Shown in pieces: positions 4,408-51,954 of a stretch of 52,295 bases of DNA (positions are counted from its first letter, which is position 1; each line of letters begins with the position of its first letter). Where the stretch lies: IMG/VR virus record IMGVR_UViG_3300045963_000039, positions 1 to 52,295 of that record; one strand, given 5' to 3'. Made by a program: the position numbers and the translations under genes. The notes under the pieces were generated by a model that saw only the letters and a program-made list of their open reading frames with translations, ran no database searches and was not told the DNA's origin. This DNA is from a virus.

Positions 4408-4413
4408 GTTTTC

Positions 4414-5202: not shown

Positions 5203-5611
5203 ACCCTATCAACTCTGATAGGCTTACTTTATTCTTATAAGACCAGTCGATTACTGTAGAGTCTGGAGATATTCTAGGCCTATTAAGAATAGTCTCCTCT
5301 TTTACTACTTTATAAATATAAGGGCTATACGTAATACCATTATTAAATACCTCAACCTTATCTCTACGGTAGAAATGAGGGTGGCCTTCTAACTGGTCTA
5401 ATCTTTTTAAAGTAGCCTCATCAACCTCATATATCTCTACCTTAATAATCTTACCCCCTGATATAATGCTAGGGAATGATCCCATAGATACCATATCATA
5501 CTCTTCGTTGGTAATTCCTTCAGCTACAAATGTACTATCTTTAAGTAGATAATGATTAGACTCACCTTTCTTCAATGTACCATATACTGCCACTAATTCT
5601 TTATTCATCAA
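5192..5611 (-). CDS. Gamma-glutamylcyclotransferase-like protein
   Basis: The 139-residue protein starts with VAVYGTLKKGESNHYLL, the substrate-cavity motif of the GGCT/AIG2 fold, and has LDQLEGHPHFYRR, whose glutamate matches the catalytic acid of the family. These enzymes release an amino acid from a gamma-glutamyl amide by forming 5-oxoproline. In the cluster it would act as an editing or reversal enzyme for gamma-linked peptides, an inference from the known phiEco32 gene set. It overlaps both neighbours by about 11 bases. Confidence 0.88.
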   Translation of the reverse strand: MMNKELVAVYGTLKKGESNHYLLKDSTFVAEGITNEEYDMVSMGSFPSIISGGKIIKVEIYEVDEATLKRLDQLEGHPHFYRRDKVEVFNNGITYSPYIYKVVKEETILNRPRISPDSTVIDWSYKNKVSLSELIGCGC

Positions 5612-19283: not shown

Positions 19284-20621
19284 ATGTCAGTTATAACAAT
19301 ACCATACCAATTTACTCCTAGAATATATCAAAAGGAGCTATTAGCTGCTAGAGATCATGGGTTTAAAAGACTACTGGCTATCTACCACCGTAGAGCTGGT
19401 AAAGATAAAACTATGTTCAACATGACAGTCAGAGAGGCTGTAAAGAGAAGAGGTGTTTATTACTACTTCTTTCCAGAGTATGCTCAAGGAAGACGGGTAA
19501 TATGGGATGGGATGGACTCTTCTGGATTCCCATTCATAGAGCATATACCAGAGCCTCTCATCCAATCTAAGAATAGTACTGAGATGAAGATAGTCCTTAC
19601 AAATGGGAGTGTTATTCAAATTATGGGGACTGATAAGTTCAATAAAGTTCGTGGTGCTAATCCTGTAGGATGTGTATTCTCAGAGTATGCTTTCCAAAAC
19701 CCTAAAGCATGGAATATTATCAGACCTATTCTAGCAGAGAATGAAGGGTGGGCAGCATTTAACTCCTCTACAAATGGAAAAAACCATTTCTATGATATGT
19801 TCCAAATGGCCTCTAGAAATCAGAATTGGTTTGTACAGAATTATAATGTAGAACAAACCTTAGATGAGAATGGAAATAGATATGTATCTGATGAGGTAAT
19901 AGAGGAAGAAAGAGCCTCTGGTATGTCTGAAGAAATGATACAACAAGAGTTTTATAACTCATGGACTGCAAACTCACAAGGTTTTTATTATCTATCTCTA
20001 CTAGAAGACCTCGATAAAAGTGGTAATATTACTAAAGTTCCTCATGATCCTTCAGCTCCTGTAGAGACATGGTGGGATATTGGAATGGGAGATAGTACTT
20101 GTATCTGGTTTACTCAAACTATGGGTAAGGAAATTCATGTTATAGATTACTATGCATCCAACAATAAAGGATTAGATCACTATGCTAAGAAATTACAGAG
20201 TAATAGGTATGTCTACAAGTCTCATAACTTTCCTTGGGATATGATTAATACTGAGTTTGGTACAGGACGTACTCGCTATGAAGTTGCAGAAGAGCTCTTT
20301 AAAGGCACTAGACTTAACATACTCCCTAAACTAAGTAAAGAGGAGGGGATCAACGCAGTACGAATGATCCTCCCGCAATGTAGATTCGATAAGAAATTAA
20401 CACTAGATGGATTAGATGGATTAAAGAACTATAGAAAGGAGTGGGATGAAAAGAATCAAGTATTCAAAACAACACCAGTGCATGATTGGGCATCAGATCC
20501 AGCAGACGCATTTAGATATTTAGCAATAGGTATAACAATGCCTAAATCTAGATCTTTTAAAAATGAATTTATGAGAGCTAACTCTAAGTTAATCTCTACT
20601 AGAAATTGGAAGACAGCTTAA
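19284..20621 (+). CDS. terL: Terminase large subunit
   Basis: 445 residues. The ATPase shows a Walker A-type motif YHRRAGKDKT (about residues 34-43), Walker B GCVFSEYAF, and a coupling motif NSSTNGKNHFYD. The C-terminal nuclease has ETWWDIGMGDSTCIWF (RNase H-like first acidic residue) and HDWASDPADAFRYLAIG. The enzyme pumps DNA into the prohead and cuts it. The stop overlaps the portal ATG. Confidence 0.92.
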   Translation: MSVITIPYQFTPRIYQKELLAARDHGFKRLLAIYHRRAGKDKTMFNMTVREAVKRRGVYYYFFPEYAQGRRVIWDGMDSSGFPFIEHIPEPLIQSKNSTEMKIVLTNGSVIQIMGTDKFNKVRGANPVGCVFSEYAFQNPKAWNIIRPILAENEGWAAFNSSTNGKNHFYDMFQMASRNQNWFVQNYNVEQTLDENGNRYVSDEVIEEERASGMSEEMIQQEFYNSWTANSQGFYYLSLLEDLDKSGNITKVPHDPSAPVETWWDIGMGDSTCIWFTQTMGKEIHVIDYYASNNKGLDHYAKKLQSNRYVYKSHNFPWDMINTEFGTGRTRYEVAEELFKGTRLNILPKLSKEEGINAVRMILPQCRFDKKLTLDGLDGLKNYRKEWDEKNQVFKTTPVHDWASDPADAFRYLAIGITMPKSRSFKNEFMRANSKLISTRNWKTA

Positions 20622-22633
20622 TGGCAATAGAAGATTTAAAAGACTATGATTTAGCTACACGACACTGGCTCCGTTATCAACACTCCCTTCTAAGAGGACA
20701 TAATACCTACCAACGCCAAGCACGTCTCTGTGAGGACTTTTATTTAGGTGGTGGTAGGCAGTGGTCAGATGATGATAAACAGGCCTTAGATGACCTTGGA
20801 AGACCTTGGTTAGAAGAGAATATAATCTTTAGTACAGTTAATACTGTAGTAGGTTATCAAACTCAGTCTAGGATGGACATAGCATATAAACCTAGAGAAG
20901 ACGATGATCAGAAAATATCTGATGTACTCTCTAAGGTAGCGATGTTCTTAACAGATCAGAACAAGTTTCCTTGGAAAGAGAGTACAGTCTTTGCAGATGG
21001 GTTAATACAGCAAAGAGGTTACTTTGACATTAAAATGGACTTTAATGAGAATGTATATGGTGATATATCTATAGAGGTGTTAGATCCTCTTGATGTTATA
21101 CCAGATCCAGATTCTAAGAGTTATGACCCAGATGACTGGGCAGATGTAACAACTACCTCCTGGATGACCTTCGATGATATTAAGACTACCTACGGTCTAG
21201 CTAAATGGAGACAAGTTCAAGCTCAAATTGAGTCATCTCCTGACTTTGGTAGAGGTACTCTAGAGCAAGAAAGAAATAAATTTGGTACTACTAATAACTT
21301 CTCTTCTTTTTATGTAAGTGAAGCGGATGTACCACATGCTCGTATTATCAATAGACAGTACTGGAAGTTACAAAATAGAGAATTCTTCTTTGATCCAGTT
21401 GTAGGTGATCTATATCCTACTTCTGACTCTATGACTACTAAAGATAAAAAGAAGTATGCTAAAGATAATAAGTTTGAGATTATTAAGAAGACCACTAAGC
21501 GAGTAAGATGGACAGTATCTACAAAAGATGTAGTTCTATTTGATGAGTGGAGCCCTTATGATCACTTTACAACAGTCCCATACTTTCCTTATTTTAGGAG
21601 AGGTGTAACAGTAGGTCTTGTAGATAATCTTATTAAGACTCAAGAGATGCTTAATAAAGTATTCTCTCAAATATTGCATACAGTAAATACTACAGCAAAC
21701 TCTGGATGGATTGTAGAAGAAAACTCCTTATCTAATATGGATACAGAAGATCTTGAAGATGTAGGTGGTCAGACCGGCCTAGTATTAGAGTTTAAAGCTG
21801 GTAGACAAAAACCAGAAAAGATTGAACCAAATCAGGTTCCTAGTGGTCTAAAGGATTTAGTCACTTCAGGAATTGATCTAATAAGATTGATATCAGGAGT
21901 CTCTGAAACATTCCAAGGTGGAAAAGGCCCAGAGGTATCTGGTGCAGCTATACAATCTAGAGTTCATCAGTCAGCCATCCAACTGGCAAGTCCAATCGAC
22001 AACCTATTTAGAACTCGTAATATGATAGCTGACCGTATATTAAAGCTACTACAAGCTTTCTATACACAAGAAAGAACATTCATGATTGTTGGGCCTAATC
22101 CTAATGGGAAACATGTACCACAGAAAGTCACAATTAATAAAGAATCAGATGATGGTTCTAGCCTTATTAATGATATTACTGTTGGTAAATATGATGTTGT
22201 AATTGCAGATGTTCCTACACAGATTACCTTCCAAAATGCTCAGTTCTCTCAAGCTATAGAACTTAGAAAATATGGTGTTCAGATACCTGATGATGAAATG
22301 GTTCTAATGAGTACTCTATCTAGAAAAGTTGATATAGCTAAAAAGTTATCAGGAGATCAAACACCTGAACAACAACAGCAAGCTCAGCTTCAAGTTGAAA
22401 CAATGAAGAAGACTATCGAAGATATGGAGTCTAAAGCAAAAGCTAAGAATGCTGAGGCACTAAAACAAATAGCAGATGTTGCTACACTTATTGCAGCTAA
22501 TCCTAAATTAAGCCCATTAATGGATGCACTATTATCCACTCTAGATTCTGATGAGTCTACTGAATCACCTAATGAACAAGATCAAGCTCCTTCTGTACAG
22601 CCTGCTCAACCACAGCAATTAGGACAGACATAA
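20621..22633 (+). CDS. Portal protein, P22 type
   Basis: About 670 residues from the ATG at 20621, which overlaps the terminase stop (TAATG); a TTG at 20606 would add five residues and is less likely. Family features are FYLGGGRQWSDDDKQAL, the RPWLEENII region, VLDPLDVIPDPDS and a central GVSETFQGGKG segment of the P22-type portal. The C-terminus is a Gln-rich coiled coil. It forms the dodecameric DNA gate at one capsid vertex. Confidence 0.88.
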   Translation: MAIEDLKDYDLATRHWLRYQHSLLRGHNTYQRQARLCEDFYLGGGRQWSDDDKQALDDLGRPWLEENIIFSTVNTVVGYQTQSRMDIAYKPREDDDQKISDVLSKVAMFLTDQNKFPWKESTVFADGLIQQRGYFDIKMDFNENVYGDISIEVLDPLDVIPDPDSKSYDPDDWADVTTTSWMTFDDIKTTYGLAKWRQVQAQIESSPDFGRGTLEQERNKFGTTNNFSSFYVSEADVPHARIINRQYWKLQNREFFFDPVVGDLYPTSDSMTTKDKKKYAKDNKFEIIKKTTKRVRWTVSTKDVVLFDEWSPYDHFTTVPYFPYFRRGVTVGLVDNLIKTQEMLNKVFSQILHTVNTTANSGWIVEENSLSNMDTEDLEDVGGQTGLVLEFKAGRQKPEKIEPNQVPSGLKDLVTSGIDLIRLISGVSETFQGGKGPEVSGAAIQSRVHQSAIQLASPIDNLFRTRNMIADRILKLLQAFYTQERTFMIVGPNPNGKHVPQKVTINKESDDGSSLINDITVGKYDVVIADVPTQITFQNAQFSQAIELRKYGVQIPDDEMVLMSTLSRKVDIAKKLSGDQTPEQQQQAQLQVETMKKTIEDMESKAKAKNAEALKQIADVATLIAANPKLSPLMDALLSTLDSDESTESPNEQDQAPSVQPAQPQQLGQT

Positions 22634-25075: not shown

Positions 25076-25452
25076 ATGGCGTTAACAAACTTCGCTGGCT
25101 TAACATCCCAGCAAAAACTTGTCTGGTCTAGAGAGATCTGGCAGGCAGCTCGTGATTTATCATTCATCAATAAATTTGTTGGTGGTCCTGATGCTGTAAT
25201 TCAACGTATTACTGAGTTGACTAAAACTGAAAAAGGCGAACAGGTAATCATGTTCCTCTTGGCAGATTTGGTAGATGACGGTGTTGTTGGTGATAGCGAA
25301 AGGGAAGGTAACGAAGAAGAGATGAAGTCTTACAACCAGACTATCTCTATTGATTTGTTGTCTCACGGAGTTAGACAGAAGGGTAAATTAGCTGAGCAAA
25401 AGACTGTAGTTGGTTTTAGAGAAAATGCTCGTGACAGATTAGCATATTGGCT
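25076..25452 (+). CDS. Major capsid protein, exon 1 (N4-gp56 family)
   Basis: N-terminal 125 codons plus two bases. FAGLTSQQKLVWSREIW, RITELTKTEKGEQVIMFLLA, GDSEREGNEEEMKSYNQTI and KLAEQKTVVGFRENARDRLA are signatures of the N4-gp56 major capsid family. The frame runs on only to a TAA just past the splice site, so the protein requires splicing to exon 2 at 26356. Joined, the junction reads YWLANRMDQLAFL, as expected for the family, and the mature protein has 367 residues. AGGAAG precedes the ATG. Confidence 0.9.
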
Positions 25453-25613
25453 TAACGATACCAGGCCCTTAGCAGCGTAAGTTGTTTAGCAAATCCCTCT
25501 AATTGCTGGAAACTCTTTAAAATAGTTAAACTACAACATAATCTGAAAAGATAAGTGTGAATGTCAAAAATTAACTATTATAAGACAATCAGCAGCTAAT
25601 ACCCTAAAAAGTC

Positions 25614-25641
25614 TTGACAAACTAAAAATTTGTGATATACT
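25614..25641 (+). promoter_or_regulatory. Near-perfect sigma70 promoter inside the intron
   Basis: TTGACA (25614-25619), 16-base spacer, TATACT (25636-25641). It lies just upstream of the R box and about 70 bases before the homing endonuclease ATG, so it could drive separate expression of that gene. Confidence 0.5.
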
Positions 25642-25711
25642 ATATGGGTAAAGTTCAGAGACTAGTCGAAAGACGTAGAGTTATAGTATTAACTTGAAAT
25701 GGGGGAGTAGT

Positions 25712-26297
25712 ATGCATTATTGTAAGTCTTGTAATGAGACAGATTTAAGTAAGTTCGGAGTTCACTCAACATCTAAAAAGCCACATGGTTATTGCAGAGT
25801 GTGTAGGAACTCTAGGTATATTGAAAAATCTAGAGAATATTACCAGTCAGATAAAGGCAAGTGTATAAAAGCTAAATCTGATAAAAAATACTATATAGAT
25901 AATGTAGATAAAAGAATATAATAAACTTTATAGACTTAAAAATGCTGAGCATATAAAGAAGTCTAGAAGGGATTCATACCTTAAAAATAAAGATGAAATA
26001 CTATTAAAATTATCTAATTATAAAAAGAATAATAAAGATAAAGTAAATAATCTATGTGCAAAGAGAAGAGCTAGTAAATTATCAGCTACTCCAGATTGGG
26101 GTAAGTTAAATTTATTAATTATAGAAGAAGCATATAATCTATCTAAACTAAGAGATGAGTTAACGAATATAAAATGACATGTTGATCATATAATACCTTT
26201 AAATAATAATAAAGTATGTGGATTACATGTTGGAATAAATCTACAAGTTATACCAAGAATAGAAAACTTAATAAAATCTAATAATGTAAGACTATAA
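25712..26297 (+). pseudogene. Degenerate HNH homing endonuclease in the intron
   Basis: The frame opens at ATG 25712 (GGGGGAG upstream) with two zinc knuckles (HYCKSCNETDLSKFG, YCRVCRN) and is closed at 25919-25921. Removing one A from the run at 25910-25913 restores a frame through repeated KN-rich helices to a TGA at 26175-26177. The TGA stands just before HVDHIIPLNNNKVCGLHV, where HNH relatives usually have Trp (TGG). Beyond it the core continues through INLQVIPRIENLIKSNN to TAA at 26295-26297, overlapping the S box. Two independent lesions indicate a non-functional gene. Confidence 0.85.
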
Positions 26298-26355
26298 GAT
26301 ATAGTCCGATCTCTATAGAGATATAGAGTGAGAAAGGATTTCTCGTAACATAATG

Positions 26356-27082
26356 TGCCAATCGTATGGATCAGCTAGCTTTCTTAACTATGGCAGGTAT
26401 TTCTTATGCCTTTAACAATGATGGTTCTCCTAGAACCTCAGGAGCTTTCGCAAGCTTGTCATTTGCATCTACTGTCGCTGCACCTACTACCAACCGTGCT
26501 AAACGTTGGGATGGGTTAAATAGCCAGTTAGTAGCAAGTAACACTGCTGCAATGCTTGCAACAGATACTTTAACTTATAAAGCTATCGTAGATACTGTTG
26601 TACAAGCTAAAACTCATTATATTAAGCCTTTGATGCAAGGTGGTAAAGAATACTATGTAGCCTTTATTCGCCCTGAAGGTCTTGCTCAGCTTAAGAAAGA
26701 TCAAGATTATCAAAGAGCAGTTGTAACTGGTGCTGATCGTGGCAAAGATAACCCTTTCTTCTCTGGTGGTATTCTGACTATTGATGGTGTTGTTTTCCAA
26801 GAACATCGTTTAGTCTATAATACTAAAGGTGCTTTATCTGGCTCTAAGTGGGGCGCATCAGGTACTATTGACGGTTCTAGAATGATGCTTTGTGGTAGCC
26901 AAGCTTTAGGTATGGCTGATCTAGGCGCTCCAGAATGGAATGAAAAATGGTTTAACTATGCTTCATCTCCTGGTATTAACGTAGATAAGATGTTTGGTTT
27001 ATTGAAACCTAAATTCTTCAGCATCTACGATAAGAGCGTTGAAGATTTCGGTGTATTCTGCGTAGATCACGCTATCTCTTAA
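26356..27082 (+). CDS. Major capsid protein, exon 2
   Basis: Begins with T-GCC-AAT-CGT-ATG in phase with exon 1. The internal ATG at 26366 is not a start but a codon in the NRMDQLAFLTMAGISYAF segment. The C-terminal two-thirds of the N4-gp56 capsid follows, including ANRAKRWDGLNSQLVAS and YYVAFIRPEGLAQLKKDQDY and the terminal DFGVFCVDHAIS. A terminator lies ten bases after the stop. Confidence 0.88.
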
Positions 27083-37050: not shown

Positions 37051-38148
37051 ATGGCATCAGATGCAATGAATAAGAAGAATCAGTTAACAGCAGGAGGCTC
37101 TGGTAGTCTAGGAGCTACTACCGGAGATAATAGTGGTACTGGTGTTTTAACTGATATAAAGAATAGATTTGCTAATACTATACCTAATATACAACAAAAA
37201 GGTCTCTTAGGTAGTATAGCTCAAGGGGTTGTTGATGCTGCTACTCTATCTACTAATGCTAGTAAAGGTTATATAGATGGAGCTAAGAAGTTTGGTAGTG
37301 ACTCTATTCAAGGTGCTAAGAGTGTTCTCTTTGGTAAAAGTTTAGATAATACGAATACAGACCCTACACCAACCACCGTTCTAGTACAGGATAATCTAAC
37401 AGGCCCTCAGACACAGGTACCAGCCTTTAAACCTACCCCAGTTCAGACACCTCTTCAGGAACCTGCATCATATCAAAGGATAGGAGGTACAACTGGTTTC
37501 AGTAATGGTCAAGGTGGAAATGCAAGTATTACCTCTGATAAAGGGTTCTCAGCAGATCAAACAAATTCTCTTAATAATACTCTAGCTTTTAATGCTAAGC
37601 AGTCTACTAAAGATATGTTTGCTAGAGATGCACAGAATACTGCTGATCAGAATGCTAAGTATGGAAACGGTTTAGAGTCTCCGCAGGATAAGCTAAGATC
37701 TTTTTATACTCAGCAACTCCAACAAGAAGCATCTCAGCCTTTTAAACGAACCGCTCTCATTAATCATTATGTAGATGCATTGCAAGGTTTAGATAATGGT
37801 AATACAGCTAAATCAAACCAGGCTATAGAAGCTCAGAAGCTAGGTTTTACTCAACAGTCTAAAACTACAGATCAGAATATAGAAGCTCAGAAGCTTATTA
37901 ATAATAATAAGGATAATGCTCTTAAGCTAATAACAGAGAGTAATAAATCTGGTATACCTAATCCAGCTTTTAATTATCAAGTATATAAACAGCATGGGCT
38001 TACTCCTTCTCTAGGAGATTTACCCGCCCTTCTATCTCCAGAAGATCTTAAATCGTATGGTGAAGCATCTCCAGAAGATAAGGTAGCTCTCCTAGATTCT
38101 AGGTTTGGTAAGAGTGCTAGAGATGAGTTATTAGGACAACAACAATAG
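37051..38148 (+). CDS. Probable internal virion protein (365 aa)
   Basis: Gly/Ser-rich N-terminus, a short amphipathic stretch (KGLLGSIAQGVVDAATLSTN), a low-complexity Pro/Thr/Gln linker and a helical Gln-rich C-terminus. Directly precedes the giant polyvalent protein gene and is probably an ejection partner. Not recognised as a known family. Confidence 0.55.
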   Translation: MASDAMNKKNQLTAGGSGSLGATTGDNSGTGVLTDIKNRFANTIPNIQQKGLLGSIAQGVVDAATLSTNASKGYIDGAKKFGSDSIQGAKSVLFGKSLDNTNTDPTPTTVLVQDNLTGPQTQVPAFKPTPVQTPLQEPASYQRIGGTTGFSNGQGGNASITSDKGFSADQTNSLNNTLAFNAKQSTKDMFARDAQNTADQNAKYGNGLESPQDKLRSFYTQQLQQEASQPFKRTALINHYVDALQGLDNGNTAKSNQAIEAQKLGFTQQSKTTDQNIEAQKLINNNKDNALKLITESNKSGIPNPAFNYQVYKQHGLTPSLGDLPALLSPEDLKSYGEASPEDKVALLDSRFGKSARDELLGQQQ

Positions 38149-38155
38149 GACCACA

Positions 38156-41100
38156 ATGGCAGCTCTAGGACAAATAGACAATAATGCAGTTAGTAAATAT
38201 TTAGGAACTGGTAAGAAGTTAGGATCGACTCCAGCTCAACCTAGTGAAGAATTAAACGCTCTTAGAACTGCTGCTAGTAACGTAGACTCTGGAGATGGAC
38301 AAAGTACTCCAGGGCTTGCTAGAAACTTAGGTAAAACCTTCTTATCTAGTACTGTTAATCTAGGTAATGCAACTATAGAATCTGGTAGACAGCTCGGCCT
38401 AATCTCAAATGAGACAGCTAATCAACAACAAAAATTAGGCTCAGAATCAGCTCAAAAACTAGGTCAGTCTACCTCTCCTTCTTTTCAGAAAGAAGCTGCT
38501 AAACAAATATTCGATGAGAATGGAAAGTATACTGGAGATTTCTCTGGTACTACCCTTCTGCATAGACTTGTATCATCTACTCCAGATTTATTAGCTACAG
38601 TAGGACCAGCAGGTCTAGCGTCTAAAGGTCTTAAAGCCTTAGGAGCATCTAGTAAGATTGCAGGTGCTTTAGGAGCTGGAGCAGCAGAGGGAGTTGTTGC
38701 AGGTGCTGAAGGTGCTTCACAGAAACGTGGAGAGGTACTAAATACTCCTATAGAACAATTAAGAAATAGCCCAGAGTTTCAAAGCTCTCTTGTATCTCAA
38801 GATCAATCTATTCCATTAGATCAAAGAGAACAGAAAGCTAGAGAAGATATAGCAGGGAAGGCTGCATCTGATGTATTTGGACAGACTGCTGCATCTACTG
38901 GTATTATTGGGGTGGCTACAGGTGGTGGTGCTCTAGGAAGTATTCTAGCTAGTTCAGGTGGAAAGATTACTAAGAGTATTATTAAGTCAGTTGGTAAAGG
39001 ATTTGCTGAAGAAGCTCTACAAGAAGCTCCACAGTCTTACAATGAACAACTCATCTCTAATGCTGCCACTAAGAAGTATGTAGATCCTAATAAGAATATT
39101 ATGGATGGTACTCTTAATGCATTAGCAGAAGGTGCAGTTACTGGAGGTGTGTTAGGTGGAGTAGGGGCAGGTGGTGCTCATGTGACTGGTTCTATTGGAA
39201 GTAAACCAGTAGATCACTCAGAAGCAGTACAAGATCTTAATCCGCTTACAGGTGAGAAGTTCCAGAATAAAGATGTAATAAATGCATATACTAAATATAA
39301 TAATACTTTCAAGAATGTAGGGGATACTCAAGCTCCTGCCTACCAAGAAATTTATAATGCTGCTAAGACTAATTTAGATGGTATAATTCAGAAAGAACAA
39401 GAGAGTTCTCAACCTGACGCTATTAAAGTATCTGAAGCAAAGACTGTCCTCGATTTAATTCAAAGATCTCATGAGTCTTTATCTAAACAAGAAGACCTAG
39501 TAAAACAACAGGATCAAGAAGCTACTAAGCAAGTAGATGAAGCTACTAAAGTAACTCCAGAATCTTTTAATCCAGATAATTTATCTGGAACTGCCAATGT
39601 GACTGATAGTAGTCCAGCAGCTATAGATAATACTGTGTCTCCTGAAGCTCCGAATGTAAATGATATTACATCTGCATTTGATAATAAAACTACTATACAG
39701 CCTATAGAGGGCATTAATGCCAACCAAATCGAAAGCACAGCAACGACTGATGTTAGTAGCGGAGCACAACCCCAAGTTCAGGAAGCAAGTGGGCCTACCT
39801 CTGAAAGTAGCACAGGACTTCACACAAGCGGACAAGAAACTGGGCAAACTCAAGAGCAAAAAGTAGGCAATAATGGATCTAAGATAATACAATCTCAAAT
39901 TGAAAACTTAGATAATACTATTAAGCAGTTACCTAAAGATAGTGAAGAGCTTCCTAATATTATAGCTAGGAGAGATGCTTTAGTAACTCATCTTAATACT
40001 AATAATAATTTAGAATCTATTGTAGATTCTTCCAAAGTTAGTCAGTCTACTCCAGAGCCAGTACTTGATAGAAGAGACAACACTTCTAAACGTGATAGAT
40101 ACTCTAAACTAATATTAGATAGAAAGATAGCAGAGAATAGAACTCTTAAATCAGACTTGGCTGATGCTAACAAGGAATTAAGAACATCTTCAGTTACTGG
40201 CCTTCCTAATAAGAAAGCATTTACTGAGCTAGCCCCACCTCCCTTCGTTGCATCTGTTGATATAGATTCATTAAAATATATTAATGATAATCTAGGGCAT
40301 GATGCAGGTAATGAACTATTAAAGACTGTTGCTAAGGTTATAGCTAAACACTCTGATGCTTATCATATCTCTGGAGATGAAATATTAGTTAGAGGTAATT
40401 CTCAACAAGAACTTGAGACTCAACTTAGAGCTGCTCAGACTGAACTTAGATCTGGTGAGCATATTATTACTGGAGATAAAGCTACCTTCAATAAGCCAGG
40501 TTTCAGTTATGGTATAGCTCCTGTCTCTCAAGATGTACCTAGTGCAGTAAAGCAATCTGACTTATCTATGTTAGATAATAAAATTGCTAGAGAGGCTACA
40601 GGTGAAAGGGCGGCTCGTGGTGAGAAGCCAGATGGTTTTCAAGATATAGCTCTTACTCCAGCAGAAGAAGATGTTAAGATTAAATCTTTATCTAATATCC
40701 AATCTATTAAAGATGCTTTAGAGTCTGAAGAGGTAACGGTAGATAATGGAGTCATAGAAGATAACTCTATAGAACCAAATCTTTCTCCATACTCTCTAGA
40801 AGATCTACATACCCTCGATCAAGTAGTAGAAGCTATCTATAATAAAGATTTAGAAATAAAAGAAGCTAAAGATAATGGAGAATCTCTGGAAGTTCGCAAG
40901 AGTCTTCAACAAGAGAGAACTCAATTAGGTCTTAAGAAGGCTGAGATAGAAGGGGTTACTAGAACTACTCCAGTTAAAGTATCTCCTAAAAATAATTTAT
41001 TTAATGATGAAATAGACGAGGATGATAATGGTGACTTTACCGAAATTTCATTTGATACATCAGGTAGTATCTTTCAAAGTAAAACAACTTTTGAGCAAAA

Positions 41101-44100
41101 TAAAACTACTCTTAAAAGGTTAACTGATTCACTTAAGAAGAGTGTTCTTGATAATATATCTTTCCATTATATAGAAGATTTTAATACACATGACTGGGCT
41201 AATGAACCTAACATGTCTAACAGTATTAAGTCTAGAACTTTCTCTTCTAAAGAAAGGGCTTTCATAGTTACATCTAAAGGAAAGAGTTCTGTATACTTTA
41301 ATGATAAACTGATAGACTCTACTGAGCGTTTAGTAGGTACATTTGCTCATGAGGTGATAGGTCACTTTGGATTAAGAAAGATATTCACTAATCGTAATGA
41401 TGAGATCTCTGGAAGTAGAACAGGCTATGATACATTCTTATTAGATCTAGTAAATAATAATCCTAAGATGAGAGCTGATATTCTTTCACTCTTGCCTAGA
41501 TGGAAAACCTATTTAATGGACTATAATCTGTCACGACCTGAAAATCATATAAACACTTTATCATCAGATCAGGTGATTCAGTTCGGTAGAGAGAAGGTGC
41601 CTGTTGAAGTTGCTATTAAATTGGCAGATGAATACATGGCAGAGCTTGCCAAAGCTAAATTCCTTAATAGACAATTCGTAGATAAGGAAGTTGGTCTAGG
41701 TGCATCTCTTGGTAAAAAGAGATCTGCTTTAAGGATACAGAGAGATAACTGGTTTAATGGGTTTATTAGAAAAGTAAGACATATGTTTAGAAGAGTCTTC
41801 GGAGATGTGTTTGCTAATAATATATCTGATCAAGACTTAGAACAAGTTATAGCTAAGAGTGTTGATGATCAATTTGAAGTCTTATCAGACAAGTATTTAG
41901 ATACTCCATTTGATAGCAGTAATTATCTGGTATATGGAGGTTTAGATACTCCAGAAACTAATATTCCTTATCAGAGTAATGGTGAAGTGCAATTTGATTC
42001 AGAAGAGTTAGATGAGGATTTAATAACTCATAAGATGACTTTGATAGATGATACTTCTGCATTTATCACTGGAACATTAGATGGCTTTGGTAGTTTATCA
42101 GATACTATTCGTAGTAAAGCTTGGAAGGTTATAAATCAAAAGATTAATGATAGTCCAATACTTGCCTCTTTTAAAACATTTGGCAACATGTCCTATCAAG
42201 ATGCATATACCTCCATGCAGAATATCTTTAAAGGAAATATATCTCAGGTTGAAAAGAGTACTCATGCATTGGCTAAAGCTTTGAATGGTCTTAATGCTTT
42301 ACAGAATCAAGCAGTCTTTGAATACTTTACTACTAAAGATGCACAAGTAGACTCTCTTCCTTTAACTCCTATACAAAAGAATATAGTAAAAAATGCTAAA
42401 GATAATATACGAAACGTTGGTAGATCATTAGCAGATCTTAATATTATTAATAAAGATTCTTTTGAGAAGAATGAAGATGCTTACTTACACACAGTTTATC
42501 TAAAGTATGTAGATCAATATAGAGGTAGCAACAAGAAAACTTCTATGCTAAGTTGGGCTAAATCTCAGAAGAATTTAAGTGAAAGAGAGAAGTTAGCCTT
42601 AGGTCAGATTAAAGATGTTAAGTTCTTAGTACCTGAAACTCTAGGAGTTCTATTAAGAGATCATACTCTTCTTACTATGTTCTCTACTCTTAATCAAATG
42701 TCTAATGAAAATAATCTATTTTGGGTTATGACTAATAATGCTAAGATTAAGTATGGGACTACTAAGTTGGATATTGATTCAGCTTATGAGCAATTAGATC
42801 GTAATAATTTTATTATAGATCAACACTCTAAAGTTGATAAGAATACATTCGGTACTACTGATACTCAAATAGAACAACTTAAGAAAGATACAGAATCTCT
42901 TAAAGTTAATATAGATGCTGTAGAGAATGCAATATTATCTCAAGCTCATTCTCATGCTCTATCTAATAATCAGACTACTGAGCAAGATAAACACGCCTTC
43001 TTAAGACAACACTACGTTCGTTTACCTAAGAAGCCTCAGTTAGGCCGTCTTAGTAATAAGTGGGTACGTAAAGAGATTGCTAACGATCTTGATGCTATAA
43101 CATCTGCTTATACTCTACACGATAAGAATACTATAGAGAGGTTCTTTGCCCAGGGCGGTACTCTTGAAAGAATCAATAGATTCTGGAAAATGAGTATGGT
43201 TGCTTTAAATCCTGGAAGTTGGGTTAGAAATACCTTTGGTAACTTTGCGTTATTAGATTTATCTACTTCTACAAATAAAGCTAAATTGATAGGTATGCTT
43301 CACCAAGAAATCTCTGGTACTTTATCAGGAAATCAAAGTGAGTACTGGAGATTGGCAGATCAGTATGGTCTATTCGGTAGCACTTGGAGTGCTGTAGAGT
43401 TACAGGATATTTATAATAACTATGGAGATGATCTTAAGAAAGCTCAGATTGAATTTCATGCTAGAGAGAATACACCTATAGATCAAGCTTTACATTTTAC
43501 TGATGAAAGATTACTAGCATTTGGTAGAATAGCTGGACATAAAATAGGTAATAGTACATCAAAGGCTTATGCTCTATTAGAAGGTACATTTAAAACTGTA
43601 TCCTTTAGGGATTATATTCAACAATGGGAGTCTCAGAATAAAGATCAATATCCTAATGGATATAAAGATCAGCAATTAACTGCTTCTCAAAGACAAATTA
43701 TTTTCTCTAAGGCTGCATCACATGCCAATGAATCTCTATTTGATTATAGTCAAGTAAACAGTATGGTTAAGACTCTTCGGAGGGTACCATTTGGCGCTCC
43801 ATTTATAACATTCTCTTATAAAGCTGGCCCTGCTGCTATTAAAGCTATGGTCAATCATCCTATTAAGTTTGCTCAATATGCTACTCTTCCTGCTTTATTA
43901 ACTACCATCGCTATGATGGCTAATGATTGGGATGATGATGATATAGCTAAATTTAGACAAGCTCTTCCAGACTATTATAGAACTAATCCAGGAGTAGCTT
44001 TCTTACCTTTTAAAGATAAGGTTGGGAGAGTACAGATTCTACCTTTAGACTATATAATACCTTGGAGTCAGTACACAACTGCTGCTAGAGCAGTCTATGA

Positions 44101-44647
44101 AAACTTTAAGGTGGATGGAGGTGAGAGCCCTATTTCAACTGGAATAAAGTCAGGTGGTACAGTTCTTAATAAGTTTGGATTTTTAGGAGGCCCTACTCCT
44201 AGTGCAATCTCTGCTATGCTATCTGGTAAGGATAAGTTTACTGGACAATCTATTATAACTCCAGGTGCTTCAGCTTCTCAGCAGTTAGGGGAAAGTATGA
44301 CATTTGCATATAATATGATAACTCCAGCATGGCTAAGTAGTCATGGTTGGTTTGCTAAGATGTATGATGCTTTTAAAGATAAACCTACTACCAATAAGTT
44401 TGGGGATATTAAGTTTACTCCATTACAAGCAGTAGCAGATATAACAGGCTTTAGAGCTACATCAGTAAATGTACAAGCTGGGCTCCAGAATAGAAAGACT
44501 GGATTTGAATACAGACTTAAAGAAACAGCAACTCTTCGATCTAAGATCATTCATGATCCTAATGAGACTAATAAGGCTGCTAAATTAAGAGATGTAGCTC
44601 AGAGAGAGAAACTTATTCGTATACAGATGAGTGAAGCTTTAAAGTAA
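38156..44647 (+). CDS. Giant polyvalent virion protein: GGDEF, zincin and LPD38-like parts
   Basis: 2163 residues. In order: small-residue-rich hydrophobic stretches at about 138-188, 245-270 and 326-348 (possible membrane insertion); a disordered linker; a GGDEF-like domain at about 675-820 with TGLPNKKAF, VDIDSLKYINDNLGHDAGNEL and S-G-D-E at 739-742 (the first Gly of the signature is Ser; the metal acids are kept); a coiled coil near 880-940; a zincin metalloprotease motif HEVIGH at 1065-1070; a long helical region; and a C-terminal part with VALNPGSWVRNTFGNFALLD and ALPDYYRTNPGVAFLPF, resembling large-polyvalent-protein domain LPD38. Such proteins are packaged and ejected with DNA and act early in the cell. 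Domain names rest on motifs. Confidence 0.75.
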   Translation: MAALGQIDNNAVSKYLGTGKKLGSTPAQPSEELNALRTAASNVDSGDGQSTPGLARNLGKTFLSSTVNLGNATIESGRQLGLISNETANQQQKLGSESAQKLGQSTSPSFQKEAAKQIFDENGKYTGDFSGTTLLHRLVSSTPDLLATVGPAGLASKGLKALGASSKIAGALGAGAAEGVVAGAEGASQKRGEVLNTPIEQLRNSPEFQSSLVSQDQSIPLDQREQKAREDIAGKAASDVFGQTAASTGIIGVATGGGALGSILASSGGKITKSIIKSVGKGFAEEALQEAPQSYNEQLISNAATKKYVDPNKNIMDGTLNALAEGAVTGGVLGGVGAGGAHVTGSIGSKPVDHSEAVQDLNPLTGEKFQNKDVINAYTKYNNTFKNVGDTQAPAYQEIYNAAKTNLDGIIQKEQESSQPDAIKVSEAKTVLDLIQRSHESLSKQEDLVKQQDQEATKQVDEATKVTPESFNPDNLSGTANVTDSSPAAIDNTVSPEAPNVNDITSAFDNKTTIQPIEGINANQIESTATTDVSSGAQPQVQEASGPTSESSTGLHTSGQETGQTQEQKVGNNGSKIIQSQIENLDNTIKQLPKDSEELPNIIARRDALVTHLNTNNNLESIVDSSKVSQSTPEPVLDRRDNTSKRDRYSKLILDRKIAENRTLKSDLADANKELRTSSVTGLPNKKAFTELAPPPFVASVDIDSLKYINDNLGHDAGNELLKTVAKVIAKHSDAYHISGDEILVRGNSQQELETQLRAAQTELRSGEHIITGDKATFNKPGFSYGIAPVSQDVPSAVKQSDLSMLDNKIAREATGERAARGEKPDGFQDIALTPAEEDVKIKSLSNIQSIKDALESEEVTVDNGVIEDNSIEPNLSPYSLEDLHTLDQVVEAIYNKDLEIKEAKDNGESLEVRKSLQQERTQLGLKKAEIEGVTRTTPVKVSPKNNLFNDEIDEDDNGDFTEISFDTSGSIFQSKTTFEQNKTTLKRLTDSLKKSVLDNISFHYIEDFNTHDWANEPNMSNSIKSRTFSSKERAFIVTSKGKSSVYFNDKLIDSTERLVGTFAHEVIGHFGLRKIFTNRNDEISGSRTGYDTFLLDLVNNNPKMRADILSLLPRWKTYLMDYNLSRPENHINTLSSDQVIQFGREKVPVEVAIKLADEYMAELAKAKFLNRQFVDKEVGLGASLGKKRSALRIQRDNWFNGFIRKVRHMFRRVFGDVFANNISDQDLEQVIAKSVDDQFEVLSDKYLDTPFDSSNYLVYGGLDTPETNIPYQSNGEVQFDSEELDEDLITHKMTLIDDTSAFITGTLDGFGSLSDTIRSKAWKVINQKINDSPILASFKTFGNMSYQDAYTSMQNIFKGNISQVEKSTHALAKALNGLNALQNQAVFEYFTTKDAQVDSLPLTPIQKNIVKNAKDNIRNVGRSLADLNIINKDSFEKNEDAYLHTVYLKYVDQYRGSNKKTSMLSWAKSQKNLSEREKLALGQIKDVKFLVPETLGVLLRDHTLLTMFSTLNQMSNENNLFWVMTNNAKIKYGTTKLDIDSAYEQLDRNNFIIDQHSKVDKNTFGTTDTQIEQLKKDTESLKVNIDAVENAILSQAHSHALSNNQTTEQDKHAFLRQHYVRLPKKPQLGRLSNKWVRKEIANDLDAITSAYTLHDKNTIERFFAQGGTLERINRFWKMSMVALNPGSWVRNTFGNFALLDLSTSTNKAKLIGMLHQEISGTLSGNQSEYWRLADQYGLFGSTWSAVELQDIYNNYGDDLKKAQIEFHARENTPIDQALHFTDERLLAFGRIAGHKIGNSTSKAYALLEGTFKTVSFRDYIQQWESQNKDQYPNGYKDQQLTASQRQIIFSKAASHANESLFDYSQVNSMVKTLRRVPFGAPFITFSYKAGPAAIKAMVNHPIKFAQYATLPALLTTIAMMANDWDDDDIAKFRQALPDYYRTNPGVAFLPFKDKVGRVQILPLDYIIPWSQYTTAARAVYENFKVDGGESPISTGIKSGGTVLNKFGFLGGPTPSAISAMLSGKDKFTGQSIITPGASASQQLGESMTFAYNMITPAWLSSHGWFAKMYDAFKDKPTTNKFGDIKFTPLQAVADITGFRATSVNVQAGLQNRKTGFEYRLKETATLRSKIIHDPNETNKAAKLRDVAQREKLIRIQMSEALK

Positions 44648-45725: not shown

Positions 45726-47408
45726 TTAGCCCTCACAAGCTACACATTCACCTTTACTGGTACTAACACCAGACTCACTTCTTATATAGTATAAAGATTT
45801 AATGTTGGGGTCTTTGAAGGCCATTTGATGAACTTCAGATATATACCCTTCATCTTCATCAGCACTAAAGAATAGATTGATAGACTGAGCTTGATCTATA
45901 TATCTCTGTCTAGTAGATGCCATTCGTATGATGGCCTTCTGATCTATTTCAAATGCGGTCTTAAATACATCCTTCTCATGATCTGATAACCAATCAACTC
46001 CTTGTACACTTCCTTTATTCTTTATAATATCTGAAATAGTTTCTTTAGAATATACCCCCTTCTCTTTCATAACTTTAAGAAGAGAGGGATTCACTCTATC
46101 CATTTCTCCTGATGCACTGCCTTGTATATAGGCATTCTTATATATAGGCTCTATACCTTGACTAACTCCACCGCATATCAACGATGAGGAGAGATTAGGA
46201 GCTATAGCTAATAGAGTAGAGTTTGCTCTTCCTGTAGCAAATGTAACCTTACACTCTTTAAATACATCTACTAACCATCTACTAGCATTATTGCTTTCAT
46301 GATATATCTCTTTAAATAATTCTATATTCTTAAGATGTGCTTCTAAACTCTCAAAAGGAATACTCTTATCTTGTAGATATGTATGGAAACCTAATGCTCC
46401 TAATCCTAAAGCCATATGATTACGTGTAAAGTTTACAGCTTTCTCTAGACCTTTTATCTTAGACCCAATCTCTATAAAGTTTAATGCTACACAATGCAGA
46501 AATACTATGCTATCAAAGATTGTATCTGTATCTTTCCACTCATCATATTTAGAAAGATTAAGTGAAGATAATACGCAAGTAAAAGTTTCATCATGATTTG
46601 ATGGAAGAGCTATTTCTGTACAAAGATTAGAGGCTAGGATTGGCATATCAACATAGAAATCTGGAGCTAGTCTATTCACTTTATCTGTAAAGAAGTAATA
46701 ACCTTTACCAGAGATCATTTTTAACTTTAGAGACTTCTGATAACGATCTATAGCATCAGGATCTCCTTTATCTAATCTATCTATAAAATCATCAGATATA
46801 CACCAACCAATATTAGCATCATCAGGATTCTTAGATATATAGTTTAATAGCTCATAGAAATCATCATGATCTATGGGTAGATAGCCAGCCCATGCACCTC
46901 TTCTACTTCCTTGATTAATATCTCTGCTAACTTGAACGAAGTCTTTGAAGACTGGCAAAACTCCAGAACTACTCCCTCTCATACCAGTTATCTTACTTCC
47001 TCTAGGTCTAATATCTCCTAGATAGCCTGAAGTACCAAACCCATTTTTAGAGAGAAGTGCAGCTTCTAATTGTCCTTCATAGAAACCATAAACACTATCA
47101 TCTATATACCCTCCAGAACAAGATACAGGACAACCTTTACTTCTTCCCATACTAGAAAGAACTGGAGTAGATGCCGCTAACCAACCATTCCAAAGTAGAT
47201 TGAAGAACTTCTTATTCCAGTAAGGTCTCTCTGGCATATATCTGGAAGCAGTCCTTGCTATCATTTGGAATCTAGCTTTGAGAGTCTCTCCTTCTTCTAG
47301 ATACTTATCCTTAAGCATTTGATAGGAGTTAGTTGTTACCCATTCTGGCATCTCTCCAGCATCTTGTAACTCTTTCCTCTCTTTAGATAATTGTTTATAC
47401 AGATTCAT
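45726..47408 (-). CDS. nrdA: Ribonucleotide reductase large subunit, class I
   Basis: 560 residues. The active-site motif SNLCTEIALP (Asn261, Cys263, Glu265) carries the thiyl-radical Cys and catalytic Glu; redox Cys partners are probably near CPVSC (93-97) and Cys278 (FTCVLSSLNL). The radical-transfer Tyr pair is in KSLYYIRSE near the end and the C-terminal swapping cysteines are in ECVACEG. It lacks an N-terminal ATP-cone, so dATP inhibition is not expected, common in phage enzymes. It reduces NDPs to dNDPs with the subunit encoded next door; the ends of the two genes touch. Confidence 0.95.
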   Translation of the reverse strand: MNLYKQLSKERKELQDAGEMPEWVTTNSYQMLKDKYLEEGETLKARFQMIARTASRYMPERPYWNKKFFNLLWNGWLAASTPVLSSMGRSKGCPVSCSGGYIDDSVYGFYEGQLEAALLSKNGFGTSGYLGDIRPRGSKITGMRGSSSGVLPVFKDFVQVSRDINQGSRRGAWAGYLPIDHDDFYELLNYISKNPDDANIGWCISDDFIDRLDKGDPDAIDRYQKSLKLKMISGKGYYFFTDKVNRLAPDFYVDMPILASNLCTEIALPSNHDETFTCVLSSLNLSKYDEWKDTDTIFDSIVFLHCVALNFIEIGSKIKGLEKAVNFTRNHMALGLGALGFHTYLQDKSIPFESLEAHLKNIELFKEIYHESNNASRWLVDVFKECKVTFATGRANSTLLAIAPNLSSSLICGGVSQGIEPIYKNAYIQGSASGEMDRVNPSLLKVMKEKGVYSKETISDIIKNKGSVQGVDWLSDHEKDVFKTAFEIDQKAIIRMASTRQRYIDQAQSINLFFSADEDEGYISEVHQMAFKDPNIKSLYYIRSESGVSTSKGECVACEG

Positions 47409-48421
47409 TAAGAGACCTCATAGTTTACTAAAGACCCACTCCACTTAAATGCGGTCTCACTCCAATTTCTATTATAATCTGACCCCTGACGAACAAAGAA
47501 ATCATGGAGTACAGAACTATTCAAGTTATTATAAAACCAATCTTTAATAGGATTATATTTAGGTAAATAAATCGGTTTAATATTTAATTGAGATAAACAA
47601 ATATCTAATCTAGATTCTACAAAGTTTATAAGTTGATGAGCTGTTATCCCTTTTATCTCACCTCTCTCAAATATCTTATTAATGATTACAGTTTCATGTT
47701 CTAATATAATCTTAGAAGTATCTACTATATCTTCTACAAGCTCTGTAATATTGAAATTAGGATTCTCGGATAGAACTTCAGATAGGTACGTGTTATATAA
47801 CCAAGCACCTCCTTGACTATGAAGATCTTCATCTTGTGCAGAGAAGTTAATACCAGCATTAATATTGACAAGTTTATTCTTTCCTTGTGTTTGAAAGTGC
47901 TTAATAAAAGCAAATGAACTATAAAGTACAGCCCCTTCTATCATAGAGAAAATTGCTATACTCTTCAATCTATTAAAATGTGTATCTCTTTTTTCAACTC
48001 GCTTTCCTATCCACTTCATTCTATTAGTTAATATAGGATCATCTAAGTATGAGTTATAAAACTCATCAGTATCCAAACCTAGCAGCTCATTAAGTCTACT
48101 ATAGAATGGTGCATGAACACCTAACTCCATAAAAGAGAATGTAGCTGCCATACGCTGAATATCAGGGCGAGGGAAGATACTAGAAATATAGTCTTTCCAG
48201 TATTCGTTCCCAACTGACAACTCGTAGATTGTAAAAAGCTTAAGAACAGAGATGATACCATGATACTCACTAGCAGTAAAATTAGTTTTAAGATCATGTA
48301 TATCCTTTTCTATTTCTATTTCATCTGGCAACCAGAAGATTTCAGATTGTTGTCTAGCAAATGAGACAGCCTGTGGATAGTCTATTGTATATGTAGATTT
48401 AGGTTGTAGAATTTTTATCAA
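47408..48421 (-). CDS. nrdB: Ribonucleotide reductase small subunit, class I
   Basis: 337 residues from a TTG start at 48421 preceded by ACGAGG. Metal ligands by pattern: Glu67 (IYELSVGNEYW), Glu99 and His103 (FMELGVHAPFY), Glu162 (MIEGAVLYSSF), Glu198 and His201 (AQDEDLHSQGG). Tyr107 lies four residues after His103, matching the radical Tyr of E. coli NrdB. The Glu99-His103 spacing is four rather than the usual three. The stop touches the nrdA start. Confidence 0.92.
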   Translation of the reverse strand: MIKILQPKSTYTIDYPQAVSFARQQSEIFWLPDEIEIEKDIHDLKTNFTASEYHGIISVLKLFTIYELSVGNEYWKDYISSIFPRPDIQRMAATFSFMELGVHAPFYSRLNELLGLDTDEFYNSYLDDPILTNRMKWIGKRVEKRDTHFNRLKSIAIFSMIEGAVLYSSFAFIKHFQTQGKNKLVNINAGINFSAQDEDLHSQGGAWLYNTYLSEVLSENPNFNITELVEDIVDTSKIILEHETVIINKIFERGEIKGITAHQLINFVESRLDICLSQLNIKPIYLPKYNPIKDWFYNNLNSSVLHDFFVRQGSDYNRNWSETAFKWSGSLVNYEVS

Positions 48422-50974: not shown

Positions 50975-51388
50975 TTATTTTTCTACCTCCAACTCCCTTA
51001 AAGCTAGTTCAAGAACTGCCAAGGAATTCCAAGCTTTATGTGCCTTATGTAATAATCCTGAATCAGAATCGTAAGGCCCGTCTATCTCATCATAGAACTG
51101 ATGTCGTAGTTCAGCAGAGGTATATCTTCGGATGCCGTTAGGTACATGCAACCAACCATGCTCCGAATACTTCTTAGCTCCGAAGGTTCCTACTTTACCT
51201 ACTTCAATTAAAGCCCTACTAAAATCACCGAGTACCAAACCAAGATCAGGCTTTCCATGATCTAACTTAGCGCCTTTATCTTTACTAGAAAGTCCAGTTG
51301 GATCTGCCTCTTTTATAATAGTAGTATCTTCTCCATCAATATTATTATCTAAATTCTCAGTTACTAGAAATTTATATAGTTTCTGCAT
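50975..51388 (-). CDS. dATP/dGTP diphosphohydrolase-like (DUF5664) protein
   Basis: 137 residues. DKGAKLDHGKPDLGLVLGDF, GTFGAKKYSEHGWLHV and RHQFYDEIDG, plus HKAHKAWNSLAVLELAL, match the phage dATP/dGTP diphosphohydrolase N-terminal domain family. The helical acidic and His residues would bind metal and split dNTPs to dNMPs. With MazG and NrdAB it belongs to the dNTP-pool module. Its start overlaps the next gene's end. Confidence 0.75.
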   Translation of the reverse strand: MQKLYKFLVTENLDNNIDGEDTTIIKEADPTGLSSKDKGAKLDHGKPDLGLVLGDFSRALIEVGKVGTFGAKKYSEHGWLHVPNGIRRYTSAELRHQFYDEIDGPYDSDSGLLHKAHKAWNSLAVLELALRELEVEK

Positions 51389-51578
51389 TACTATTAACTA
51401 TCTCCTGTTCTTGTCGCTTATATAATAGAATATCGGCTAATAAATCATCTAACTTATTAGCTCTATCATATAAACTAACTATCTCTCTAATTGTATAGAT
51501 TCCAATATCATATCCTGTGTCATCATAGTCTTCTTTTTCAGCATTTAAATCCCCATCACAATCTACATATACAAACAT
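51372..51578 (-). CDS. Unknown acidic protein (68 aa)
   Basis: Strongly acidic N-terminus (VDCDGDLNAEKEDYDDTGYD) followed by a helix (ANKLDDLLADILLYKRQEQE). No family recognised. One base separates it from the MazG-like gene. Confidence 0.6.
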   Translation of the reverse strand: MFVYVDCDGDLNAEKEDYDDTGYDIGIYTIREIVSLYDRANKLDDLLADILLYKRQEQEIVNSNAETI

Positions 51579-51579
51579 A

Positions 51580-51954
51580 CTATTTAAAATTAAGCATAGC
51601 TTTAATATCTAAAAGAGTAGACTCTTTAGGAAGATCTGCTTCTTTTACAAAGACTCCATTAATCATTTTACCTTTACGATCTTTAATTTCATTCCATGCT
51701 AACTCTAAACACTTTTCTACAGAAGTATTATGTAATGCTGCATTAATGATAAGAGTTACAACTATATCTCCTATATCATCTTTAATACAAAAGCCACGAG
51801 CAGCATGATTAGCAAACTCTCCAACCTCACTTACACACTTAAGAGCTTGAGTAGCCTTGTGTAATGGAGTAGGATTATCCAATAATCCTCTATCCTTAGC
51901 CCAGAATATTACATTTTCTTCTAGCTCATTAAAACCTTTATTTCCCATTTGCAC
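51580..51954 (-). CDS. MazG-like nucleotide pyrophosphohydrolase
   Basis: 124 residues. The metal-binding motif is SEVGEFANHAARG followed by KDDIGDIVVTLIINAA, the E-x-x-E ... D/E-x-x-D arrangement of all-alpha NTP pyrophosphatases. It would hydrolyse (d)NTPs or host alarmones. Near the thymidylate synthase and DUF5664 genes. Confidence 0.8.
   Translation of the reverse strand: MQMGNKGFNELEENVIFWAKDRGLLDNPTPLHKATQALKCVSEVGEFANHAARGFCIKDDIGDIVVTLIINAALHNTSVEKCLELAWNEIKDRKGKMINGVFVKEADLPKESTLLDIKAMLNFK

What the first reader, a model, noticed from the sequence alone, without database searches (positions are those of the whole stretch)
38156..44647. Giant ejected protein with a GGDEF-like domain and a zincin protease
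The protein joins membrane-active Gly/Ala stretches, a GGDEF-like domain keeping the metal acids (SGDE signature), a HEVIGH metalloprotease motif and an LPD38-like end. If active, the phage could deliver a c-di-GMP (or other cyclic nucleotide) synthase and a protease with its DNA to alter host signalling or defence.
Basis: partly seen in the sequence, partly recalled or inferred. Interest (0 to 1): 0.75.

Follow-up and report, generated by a model that had tools for sequence, protein, structure and literature searches.

The report
Phage polyvalent protein with GGDEF domain
A podovirus-like phage encodes a 2,163-residue protein of the kind that is packed into the virus particle and probably injected with the DNA; it carries what looks like an intact enzyme for making a bacterial cyclic-dinucleotide signal and a zinc-protease-like domain, a predicted but experimentally untested way of meddling with host signalling.

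Summary
Window 38156-44647 (+) is one frame of 2163 aa with a GGDEF domain above Pfam's cut-off (aa 659-832) and a metallopeptidase-type domain (H1065, E1066, H1070, E1159). The GGDEF model is excellent (pLDDT 95.7) and superposes on active diguanylate cyclases (DgcB, Z 17.0). Metal ligands, catalytic Glu and one phosphate-binding Lys are kept; one guanine contact is changed (D to N719). The "LPD38-like" end is not supported; membrane activity of the Gly/Ala part is unproven. The protein is a phage-type polyvalent protein; Iyer et al. (2017) already reported GGDEF and HEXXXH peptidases in this class. Added here: (1) a phage clade of GGDEF domains on 54 viral contigs, 49 of them inside frames of 1000 aa or more, with conserved catalytic residues and no canonical product-inhibition site; (2) three sister phages have the same giant protein without GGDEF and with unrelated sequence in that stretch, so GGDEF is swappable cargo. 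Best reading: a virion cargo protein delivering an unregulated cyclic-dinucleotide synthase. Delivery, activity and product are untested. A new member of a known kind.

The parts
38156..44647 (+). Giant polyvalent-type protein, 2163 aa, last gene of the + strand structural module
   Evidence: ORF; syntenic homologues in MW202615, L152, L153
38423..39673 (+). N-terminal region (aa 90-506) similar to DarB-like giant virion proteins and to the N-terminal part of N4-type virion RNA polymerase
   Evidence: phrog_10089 E 1.1e-13, phrog_2206 E 2.6e-11, phrog_938 E 1.9e-9; same families hit by sister L153
39506..41077 (+). Variable cargo slot (about aa 451-974) with low-complexity linkers; holds GGDEF here, other sequence in three sister phages
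   Evidence: Identity to MW202615 falls to 12-27% here against 37-57% before and up to 85% after; sisters lack GGDEF
40130..40651 (+). GGDEF domain (aa 659-832), phage-type clade; preceded by a helix that superposes on the coiled coil of DgcB
   Evidence: Pfam, AF2 pLDDT 95.7, Foldseek and VIA matches to diguanylate cyclases
40259..40261 (+). D702, metal ligand (PleD D327); D in 55 of 55 phage-type domains
40310..40312 (+). N719 at the place of the guanine-contacting Asp (PleD D344): D in 47, N in 5, T in 3 of 55
40370..40381 (+). SGDE signature (aa 739-742): D741 metal ligand and E742; both kept in 54 of 54
40580..40582 (+). K809, phosphate contact (PleD K442); K in 53 of 54
41084..41908 (+). 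Zincin-like metallopeptidase domain (aa 977-1251)
   Evidence: A8 alignment, AF2 pLDDT 71, VIA matches to zincins Z 5.3-6.7
41348..41365 (+). HEVIGH (HExxxH) active-site helix, aa 1065-1070
   Evidence: invariant H, E, H and G1072 in 8 homologues; HEVIGH, HELVGH, HELGH in sisters
41630..41632 (+). E1159, predicted third zinc ligand in the DEYMAELA helix
   Evidence: invariant; helix in model
42053..44644 (+). Conserved C-terminal core (aa about 1300-2163), 66% identical to sister; function unknown, perhaps the packaging/ejection body; not recognised as LPD38
37051..38148 (+). Syntenic neighbour upstream of the giant gene (365 aa)
   Evidence: no Pfam or PHROG match; same gene order in MW202615, L152, L153
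35183..37042 (+). Syntenic neighbour (619 aa)
   Evidence: phrog_10969 E 2.2e-105

Best explanation
The gene encodes a phage-type polyvalent protein. Its N- and C-terminal parts form a conserved body that is packed into the virion and leaves it with the DNA (inferred). The middle carries swappable cargo, here a GGDEF cyclase that keeps the catalytic residues and lacks the canonical feedback-inhibition site, so that once in the cell it would make a cyclic dinucleotide (c-di-GMP, or another if N719 relaxes base choice) without host control. The HEVIGH zincin domain most likely cuts the long chain to fit or release the cargo. Shown here: domains, fold, conservation of residues, gene position, variation of the slot among sister phages. 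Inferred: packaging, ejection, catalysis, cleavage, effect on the host.
For: GGDEF family match and high-confidence fold matching active diguanylate cyclases. Equivalents of D327, E370, E371 and K442, none of them part of the search pattern LK[WY][VI]NDN, are kept in 55/55, 54/54, 54/54 and 53/54 phage-type domains. RxxD inhibitory site at canonical spacing in 0 of 53. N-terminal region matches DarB-like and virion RNA polymerase families; a DarB-like 4515-aa protein is virion-associated by mass spectrometry in podovirus JC1 (PMC9144972) and DarB is in the P1 head (PMC9024508). The gene is the last of the structural module and this order is conserved in three sisters. GGDEF is absent from all three sister records. 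49 of 54 viral contigs with the phage-type GGDEF hold it in a frame of 1000 aa or more, some with other polyvalent domains such as InPase and GNAT (L041) or LPD22 (L030). Zincin triad conserved in 8 proteins.
Against: N719 replaces a guanine contact and E813 stands where PleD has R446, so affinity or specificity may be altered. The window's domain sits on a long branch (1.46). Packaging rests on homology and position only; the DarB and RNA-polymerase matches lie in a Gly/Ala-rich part and sister L152 does not hit them. The zincin model is moderate (pLDDT 71) and Foldseek gives no match below E 0.001. No biochemical data.
Confidence: 0.55

Rival explanations
1. The GGDEF domain is not a cyclase any more but a nucleotide-binding module (GTP or c-di-GMP sensor or sponge) within the ejected protein, for example binding or sensing host signal nucleotides.
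For: Many bacterial GGDEF domains are degenerate receptors (general knowledge). N719, E813 and the I in SGDEI depart from the canonical site.
Against: Degenerate receptors usually lose the metal acids; here they are kept in the window and in almost every relative. No RxxD c-di-GMP-binding site.
Confidence: 0.2
2. The giant protein is purely structural (inner core or ejection channel) and GGDEF and zincin are relics without a role in infection.
For: The C-terminal core is the best kept part; sisters do without GGDEF.
Against: Catalytic residues are kept over great divergence in the clade, and the slot differs between sisters, as expected for cargo rather than relics.
Confidence: 0.12
3. The protein is made late and acts inside the producing cell rather than being injected; GGDEF changes signalling during the late stage or in lysogens. 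The standalone GGDEF genes of Yuavirus and Vojvodinavirus show that this domain can also work outside a virion protein.
For: Standalone 152-156 aa genes of the same clade outside the structural module.
Against: The window gene lies in the structural module, with N-terminal similarity to packaged proteins.
Confidence: 0.13

Closest known systems
Phage-type polyvalent proteins with GGDEF (Iyer et al. 2017, PMC5512222; e.g. Acetonema longum prophage protein WP_004096050.1)
   Same: Giant multidomain protein of a phage, GGDEF plus zincin-like MPTase, HEXXXH form of the MPTase described, polyvalent domains in relatives
   Different: The Acetonema protein also has SWI2/SNF2, methyltransferase and ART domains; LPD38 not found here; here the GGDEF slot is shown to vary between sister phages
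DarB-like giant virion proteins of Bcep22-like podoviruses (JC1 gp69, PMC9144972)
   Same: N-terminal region similar (phrog_10089), podovirus-type phage, end of the morphogenesis module
   Different: About twice as long; no GGDEF mentioned; only part of the protein is similar
Bacterial diguanylate cyclases (DgcB 6ttr, SiaD 7e6g, WspR, PleD)
   Same: GGDEF fold, metal acids, K442 equivalent, leading helix
   Different: D344 to N, F330 to S, canonical RxxD site absent, no sensory input domain seen; separate clade
Standalone GGDEF genes of Yuavirus / Vojvodinavirus (Mesyanzhinovviridae)
   Same: Same GGDEF clade with the GxRAARGxxP tail
   Different: About 150-residue solo proteins outside the structural module, not part of a virion giant
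Dipeptidyl peptidase III (M49), HELLGH...E
   Same: HExxGH zinc motif with a downstream Glu (PMC3268031)
   Different: Fold comparison points to other zincins (Z 5-7); no sequence homology to M49 found

Membership tests
Phage polyvalent proteins (Iyer et al. 2017) | Very long protein combining unrelated enzymatic domains in one chain | tested here: met
   2163 aa with GGDEF and zincin-like domains
Phage polyvalent proteins (Iyer et al. 2017) | Encoded among late / virion genes | tested here: met
   Portal, capsid, head closure and other structural genes upstream on the same strand; giant gene is last of the module
Phage polyvalent proteins (Iyer et al. 2017) | Packaged and delivered with the DNA | not testable with these tools
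   Only homology to packaged proteins
   No match at E up to 10 in protein, sisters or C-terminal alignment; control rang nowhere
GGDEF / diguanylate cyclase | GGDEF fold | tested here: met
   pLDDT 95.7; DgcB Z 17.0, rmsd 2.2 over 159 residues
GGDEF / diguanylate cyclase | Metal ligands (Asp in first strand, third acid of GG[DE]EF) and the following Glu | tested here: met
   D702, D741, E742
GGDEF / diguanylate cyclase | Guanine contacts N335 and D344 | tested here: inconclusive
   N710 kept; D344 is N719
GGDEF / diguanylate cyclase | Makes c-di-GMP from GTP | not testable with these tools
   needs an assay
Hypr GGDEF (cGAMP synthases) | Ser/Thr at the D344 position | tested here: not met
   Asn at 719; Ser348 rule from PMC6456294
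Zincin metallopeptidase, polyvalent HEXXXH type | HExx(x)H helix plus third-ligand Glu on a second helix | tested here: met
   H1065, E1066, H1070, E1159 invariant in 8; both helices in the model
Zincin metallopeptidase, polyvalent HEXXXH type | Zincin fold | tested here: inconclusive
   VIA Z 5.3-6.7 to several zincins, Foldseek none below 0.001
M49 dipeptidyl peptidase III | M49 fold and sequence family | tested here: inconclusive
   No sequence match in PDB search with profile A8; M49 not among the fold matches

The most novel reading that the evidence does not exclude
Many phages inject, as a swappable module of a virion protein, an unregulated cyclic-dinucleotide synthase of a phage-only GGDEF clade, which raises c-di-GMP or a variant dinucleotide in the new host from the first minutes, before phage genes are expressed, to saturate or misdirect cyclic-nucleotide defence or lifestyle switches.
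Probability: 0.3. Interest if true: 0.85.

Novelty: new member of a known kind. Interest (0 to 1): 0.5.

Why it matters
If active, it would be direct evidence that phages deliver a second-messenger synthase with their DNA, a prediction open since 2017. The clade described here (54 viral contigs) gives a choice of proteins to test, some short (L008, 637 aa), and the sister phages that lack GGDEF in an otherwise matching protein make natural controls.

Tried and rejected
Scans of viral contigs with P0001, alignment A1 and the C-terminal alignment A3 found no relatives; the metallopeptidase alignment did. LPD38 as the C-terminal domain: not supported, no match anywhere. Hypr-type cGAMP synthase: rejected, Asn not Ser/Thr. 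ADP-ribosyltransferase in the slot of MW202615 (motif-like YHSS and HFGVHLS): no Pfam or PHROG match, left as a guess. GNAT in the slot of L152: Pfam Acetyltransf_1 E 0.012-0.017, below cut-off, and the PDB search gave nothing; weak. M49 relationship suggested by the HExxGH motif: motif resemblance only. Phage record MT836492 (H2) with a GGDEF hit: a GGDEF-EAL regulator among bacterial-looking genes, set aside. Caveats: relatives were found through the pattern LK[WY][VI]NDN, so conservation of K707, N710 and D711 is partly by selection; the bacterial comparison set was picked by nearly the same pattern.

Full report
The window is a 52,295-base virus record of IMG/VR, 35% G+C, with a portal (20606-22633), a major capsid protein, a head-closure protein and other structural genes on the + strand, and ribonucleotide reductase genes on the - strand after the giant gene. 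Its nearest annotated relative is MW202615, a complete 65 kb 'Podoviridae sp.' genome from Manatee Spring.

The observation. Window 38156-44647 (+) is one frame of 2163 codons. Pfam finds one family, GGDEF, aa 698-809, above its cut-off. PHROGs finds a GGDEF-containing family at aa 661-826 and, in the N-terminal region, DarB-like, virion-RNA-polymerase and giant-endolysin families. HEVIGH lies at aa 1065-1070. The LPD38 model matches neither this protein nor its sisters.

The GGDEF domain. From an alignment of 51 phage sequences AlphaFold2 gives a model with mean pLDDT 95.7. The top matches of Foldseek and VIA-align are GGDEF enzymes: SiaD, WspR, SadC, DgcB, PleD, best among those covering the leading helix DgcB with its coiled coil, Z 17.0, rmsd 2.2 over 159 residues. 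In PleD numbering (from general knowledge of that enzyme) the window keeps D327, D329, K332, N335, D336, H340, G343, the acid at 370 (as D), E371 and K442, with F330S, D344N, R366H, G368S, F372I and R446E. S at 330, H at 366 and S at 368 are the commonest letters in the phage clade; N at 344 is found in 5 of 55, and T in 3. In canonical enzymes Asp at that place drives specificity for GTP and Ser marks the promiscuous Hypr enzymes (PMC6456294); the effect of Asn is not known to me. The RxxD product-inhibition site is absent at canonical spacing in the window and in all 53 phage domains checked; it is also rare (5 of 75) in the bacterial set used here, so its absence alone says little about regulation.

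A phage clade. Scans of viral contigs gave 54 distinct contigs with a domain scoring 100 bits or more against the phage profile, whereas the bacterial cyclases fetched score at most about 98. In 49 of the 54 the domain lies in a frame of 1000 residues or more (up to 4065), in two in frames of 665 and 968, and in three in a small gene. A likelihood tree separates 54 phage-type rows from 45 bacterial rows by one branch (99/90), with the solo genes of Yuavirus and Vojvodinavirus as one subgroup. The root is not known, the comparison set was chosen by a similar pattern, a few phage-type rows come from MAG contigs, and the window's own branch is long (1.46). Companions in the same chains include InPase and GNAT (L041), LPD22 (L030 above cut-off, L020 below) and weak ART-PolyVal and RadC matches, all of them domains that Pfam or Iyer et al. 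place in polyvalent proteins.

The metallopeptidase. In sister phages the motif reads HEVIGH (L152), HELVGH (L153) and HELGH (MW202615). Across 8 proteins, five of them other giant GGDEF proteins, the invariant columns are H1065, E1066, H1070, G1072, E1159 and A1162. The model (pLDDT 71) shows a helix, strands, the HEVIGH helix and a second helix with E1159, the core that Iyer et al. describe. VIA-align ranks zincins first: the lethal-factor-type fold (Z 6.7), MATCAP (6.1), two small zincins and a DNA-protein-crosslink protease (5.3-5.7); Foldseek alone has no match under E 0.001. This is a fold-level resemblance of middling strength and says nothing about substrate. HExxxH with a third-ligand Glu is a working zinc site in dipeptidyl peptidase III (PMC3268031), and Iyer et al. 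list HEXXXH as one form of the polyvalent peptidases.

A cargo slot. Against MW202615 identity is 37-57% over aa 1-420, falls to 12-27% over about aa 481-1020, and climbs to as much as 85% in the C-terminal core. GGDEF is absent from the whole records of MW202615, L152 and L153, while the giant gene, the genes before it and the genes after it are arranged alike by size and strand. The slot of L152 has a weak acetyltransferase match (E 0.012); those of MW202615 and L153 are unassigned. So GGDEF is optional in an otherwise conserved protein.

How it most likely works. The conserved ends package and eject the protein; the middle is cargo; the zincin trims it. Precedents: the 4515-aa DarB-like protein of podovirus JC1 was found in purified virions with 51 unique peptides (PMC9144972); P1 DarB is a head protein whose first 30 residues suffice for packaging a reporter (PMC9024508); Iyer et al. 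propose that the peptidase processes the chain. A synthase without an input domain would be expected to be constitutively active when released. This chain of inference is untested at every step beyond fold and conservation.

Novelty. The class, its GGDEF content and the HEXXXH peptidase are published (PMC5512222), so this is a new member of a known kind. The size of the clade and the variation of the slot between sister phages go beyond that paper's remark that GGDEF is not very widespread in polyvalent proteins. I found no paper in the held library that tests a phage GGDEF of this kind, but the library is partial.

Noticed in passing
25076-27082 (+): The major capsid gene is split: 25076-25480 matches positions 1-129 and 26366-27082 positions 130-379 of phrog_334. 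The gap has two sub-threshold matches to the group I intron family RF00028 (25443-25678 and 26227-26328, E about 1e-4), so a group I intron in the capsid gene is likely; a small ORF with CxxC motifs lies inside.
   Followed up: partly
633-5611 (-): Gene cassette with glutamine amidotransferase, amidoligase, COOH-NH2 ligase, RimK-like ATP-grasp and GGACT families, like the peptide-ligation cassettes known from phiEco32-type phages.
   Followed up: no
50975-51954 (-): dATP/dGTP diphosphohydrolase N-terminal family (PF18909) next to a MazG-like gene. Relatives occur in phages with modified adenine; no adenylosuccinate synthetase-like gene was found in the record, which may be incomplete.
   Followed up: partly
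45726-48421 (-): Separate large and small ribonucleotide reductase genes that both match one fused PHROG (phrog_30939), while sister MW202615 has a single 1025-aa reductase gene.
   Followed up: no
L156 (MT491207.1 28440-43283): Pseudomonas phage vB_PaeM_USP_18, which shares the head-closure protein, ends its structural module with a gene of about 4947 aa annotated only as hypothetical.
   Followed up: no
L006 (MT836492.1): A record named 'Bacteriophage sp.' carries a GGDEF-EAL regulator among bacterial-looking transporter and metabolic genes; probably bacterial contamination.
   Followed up: no
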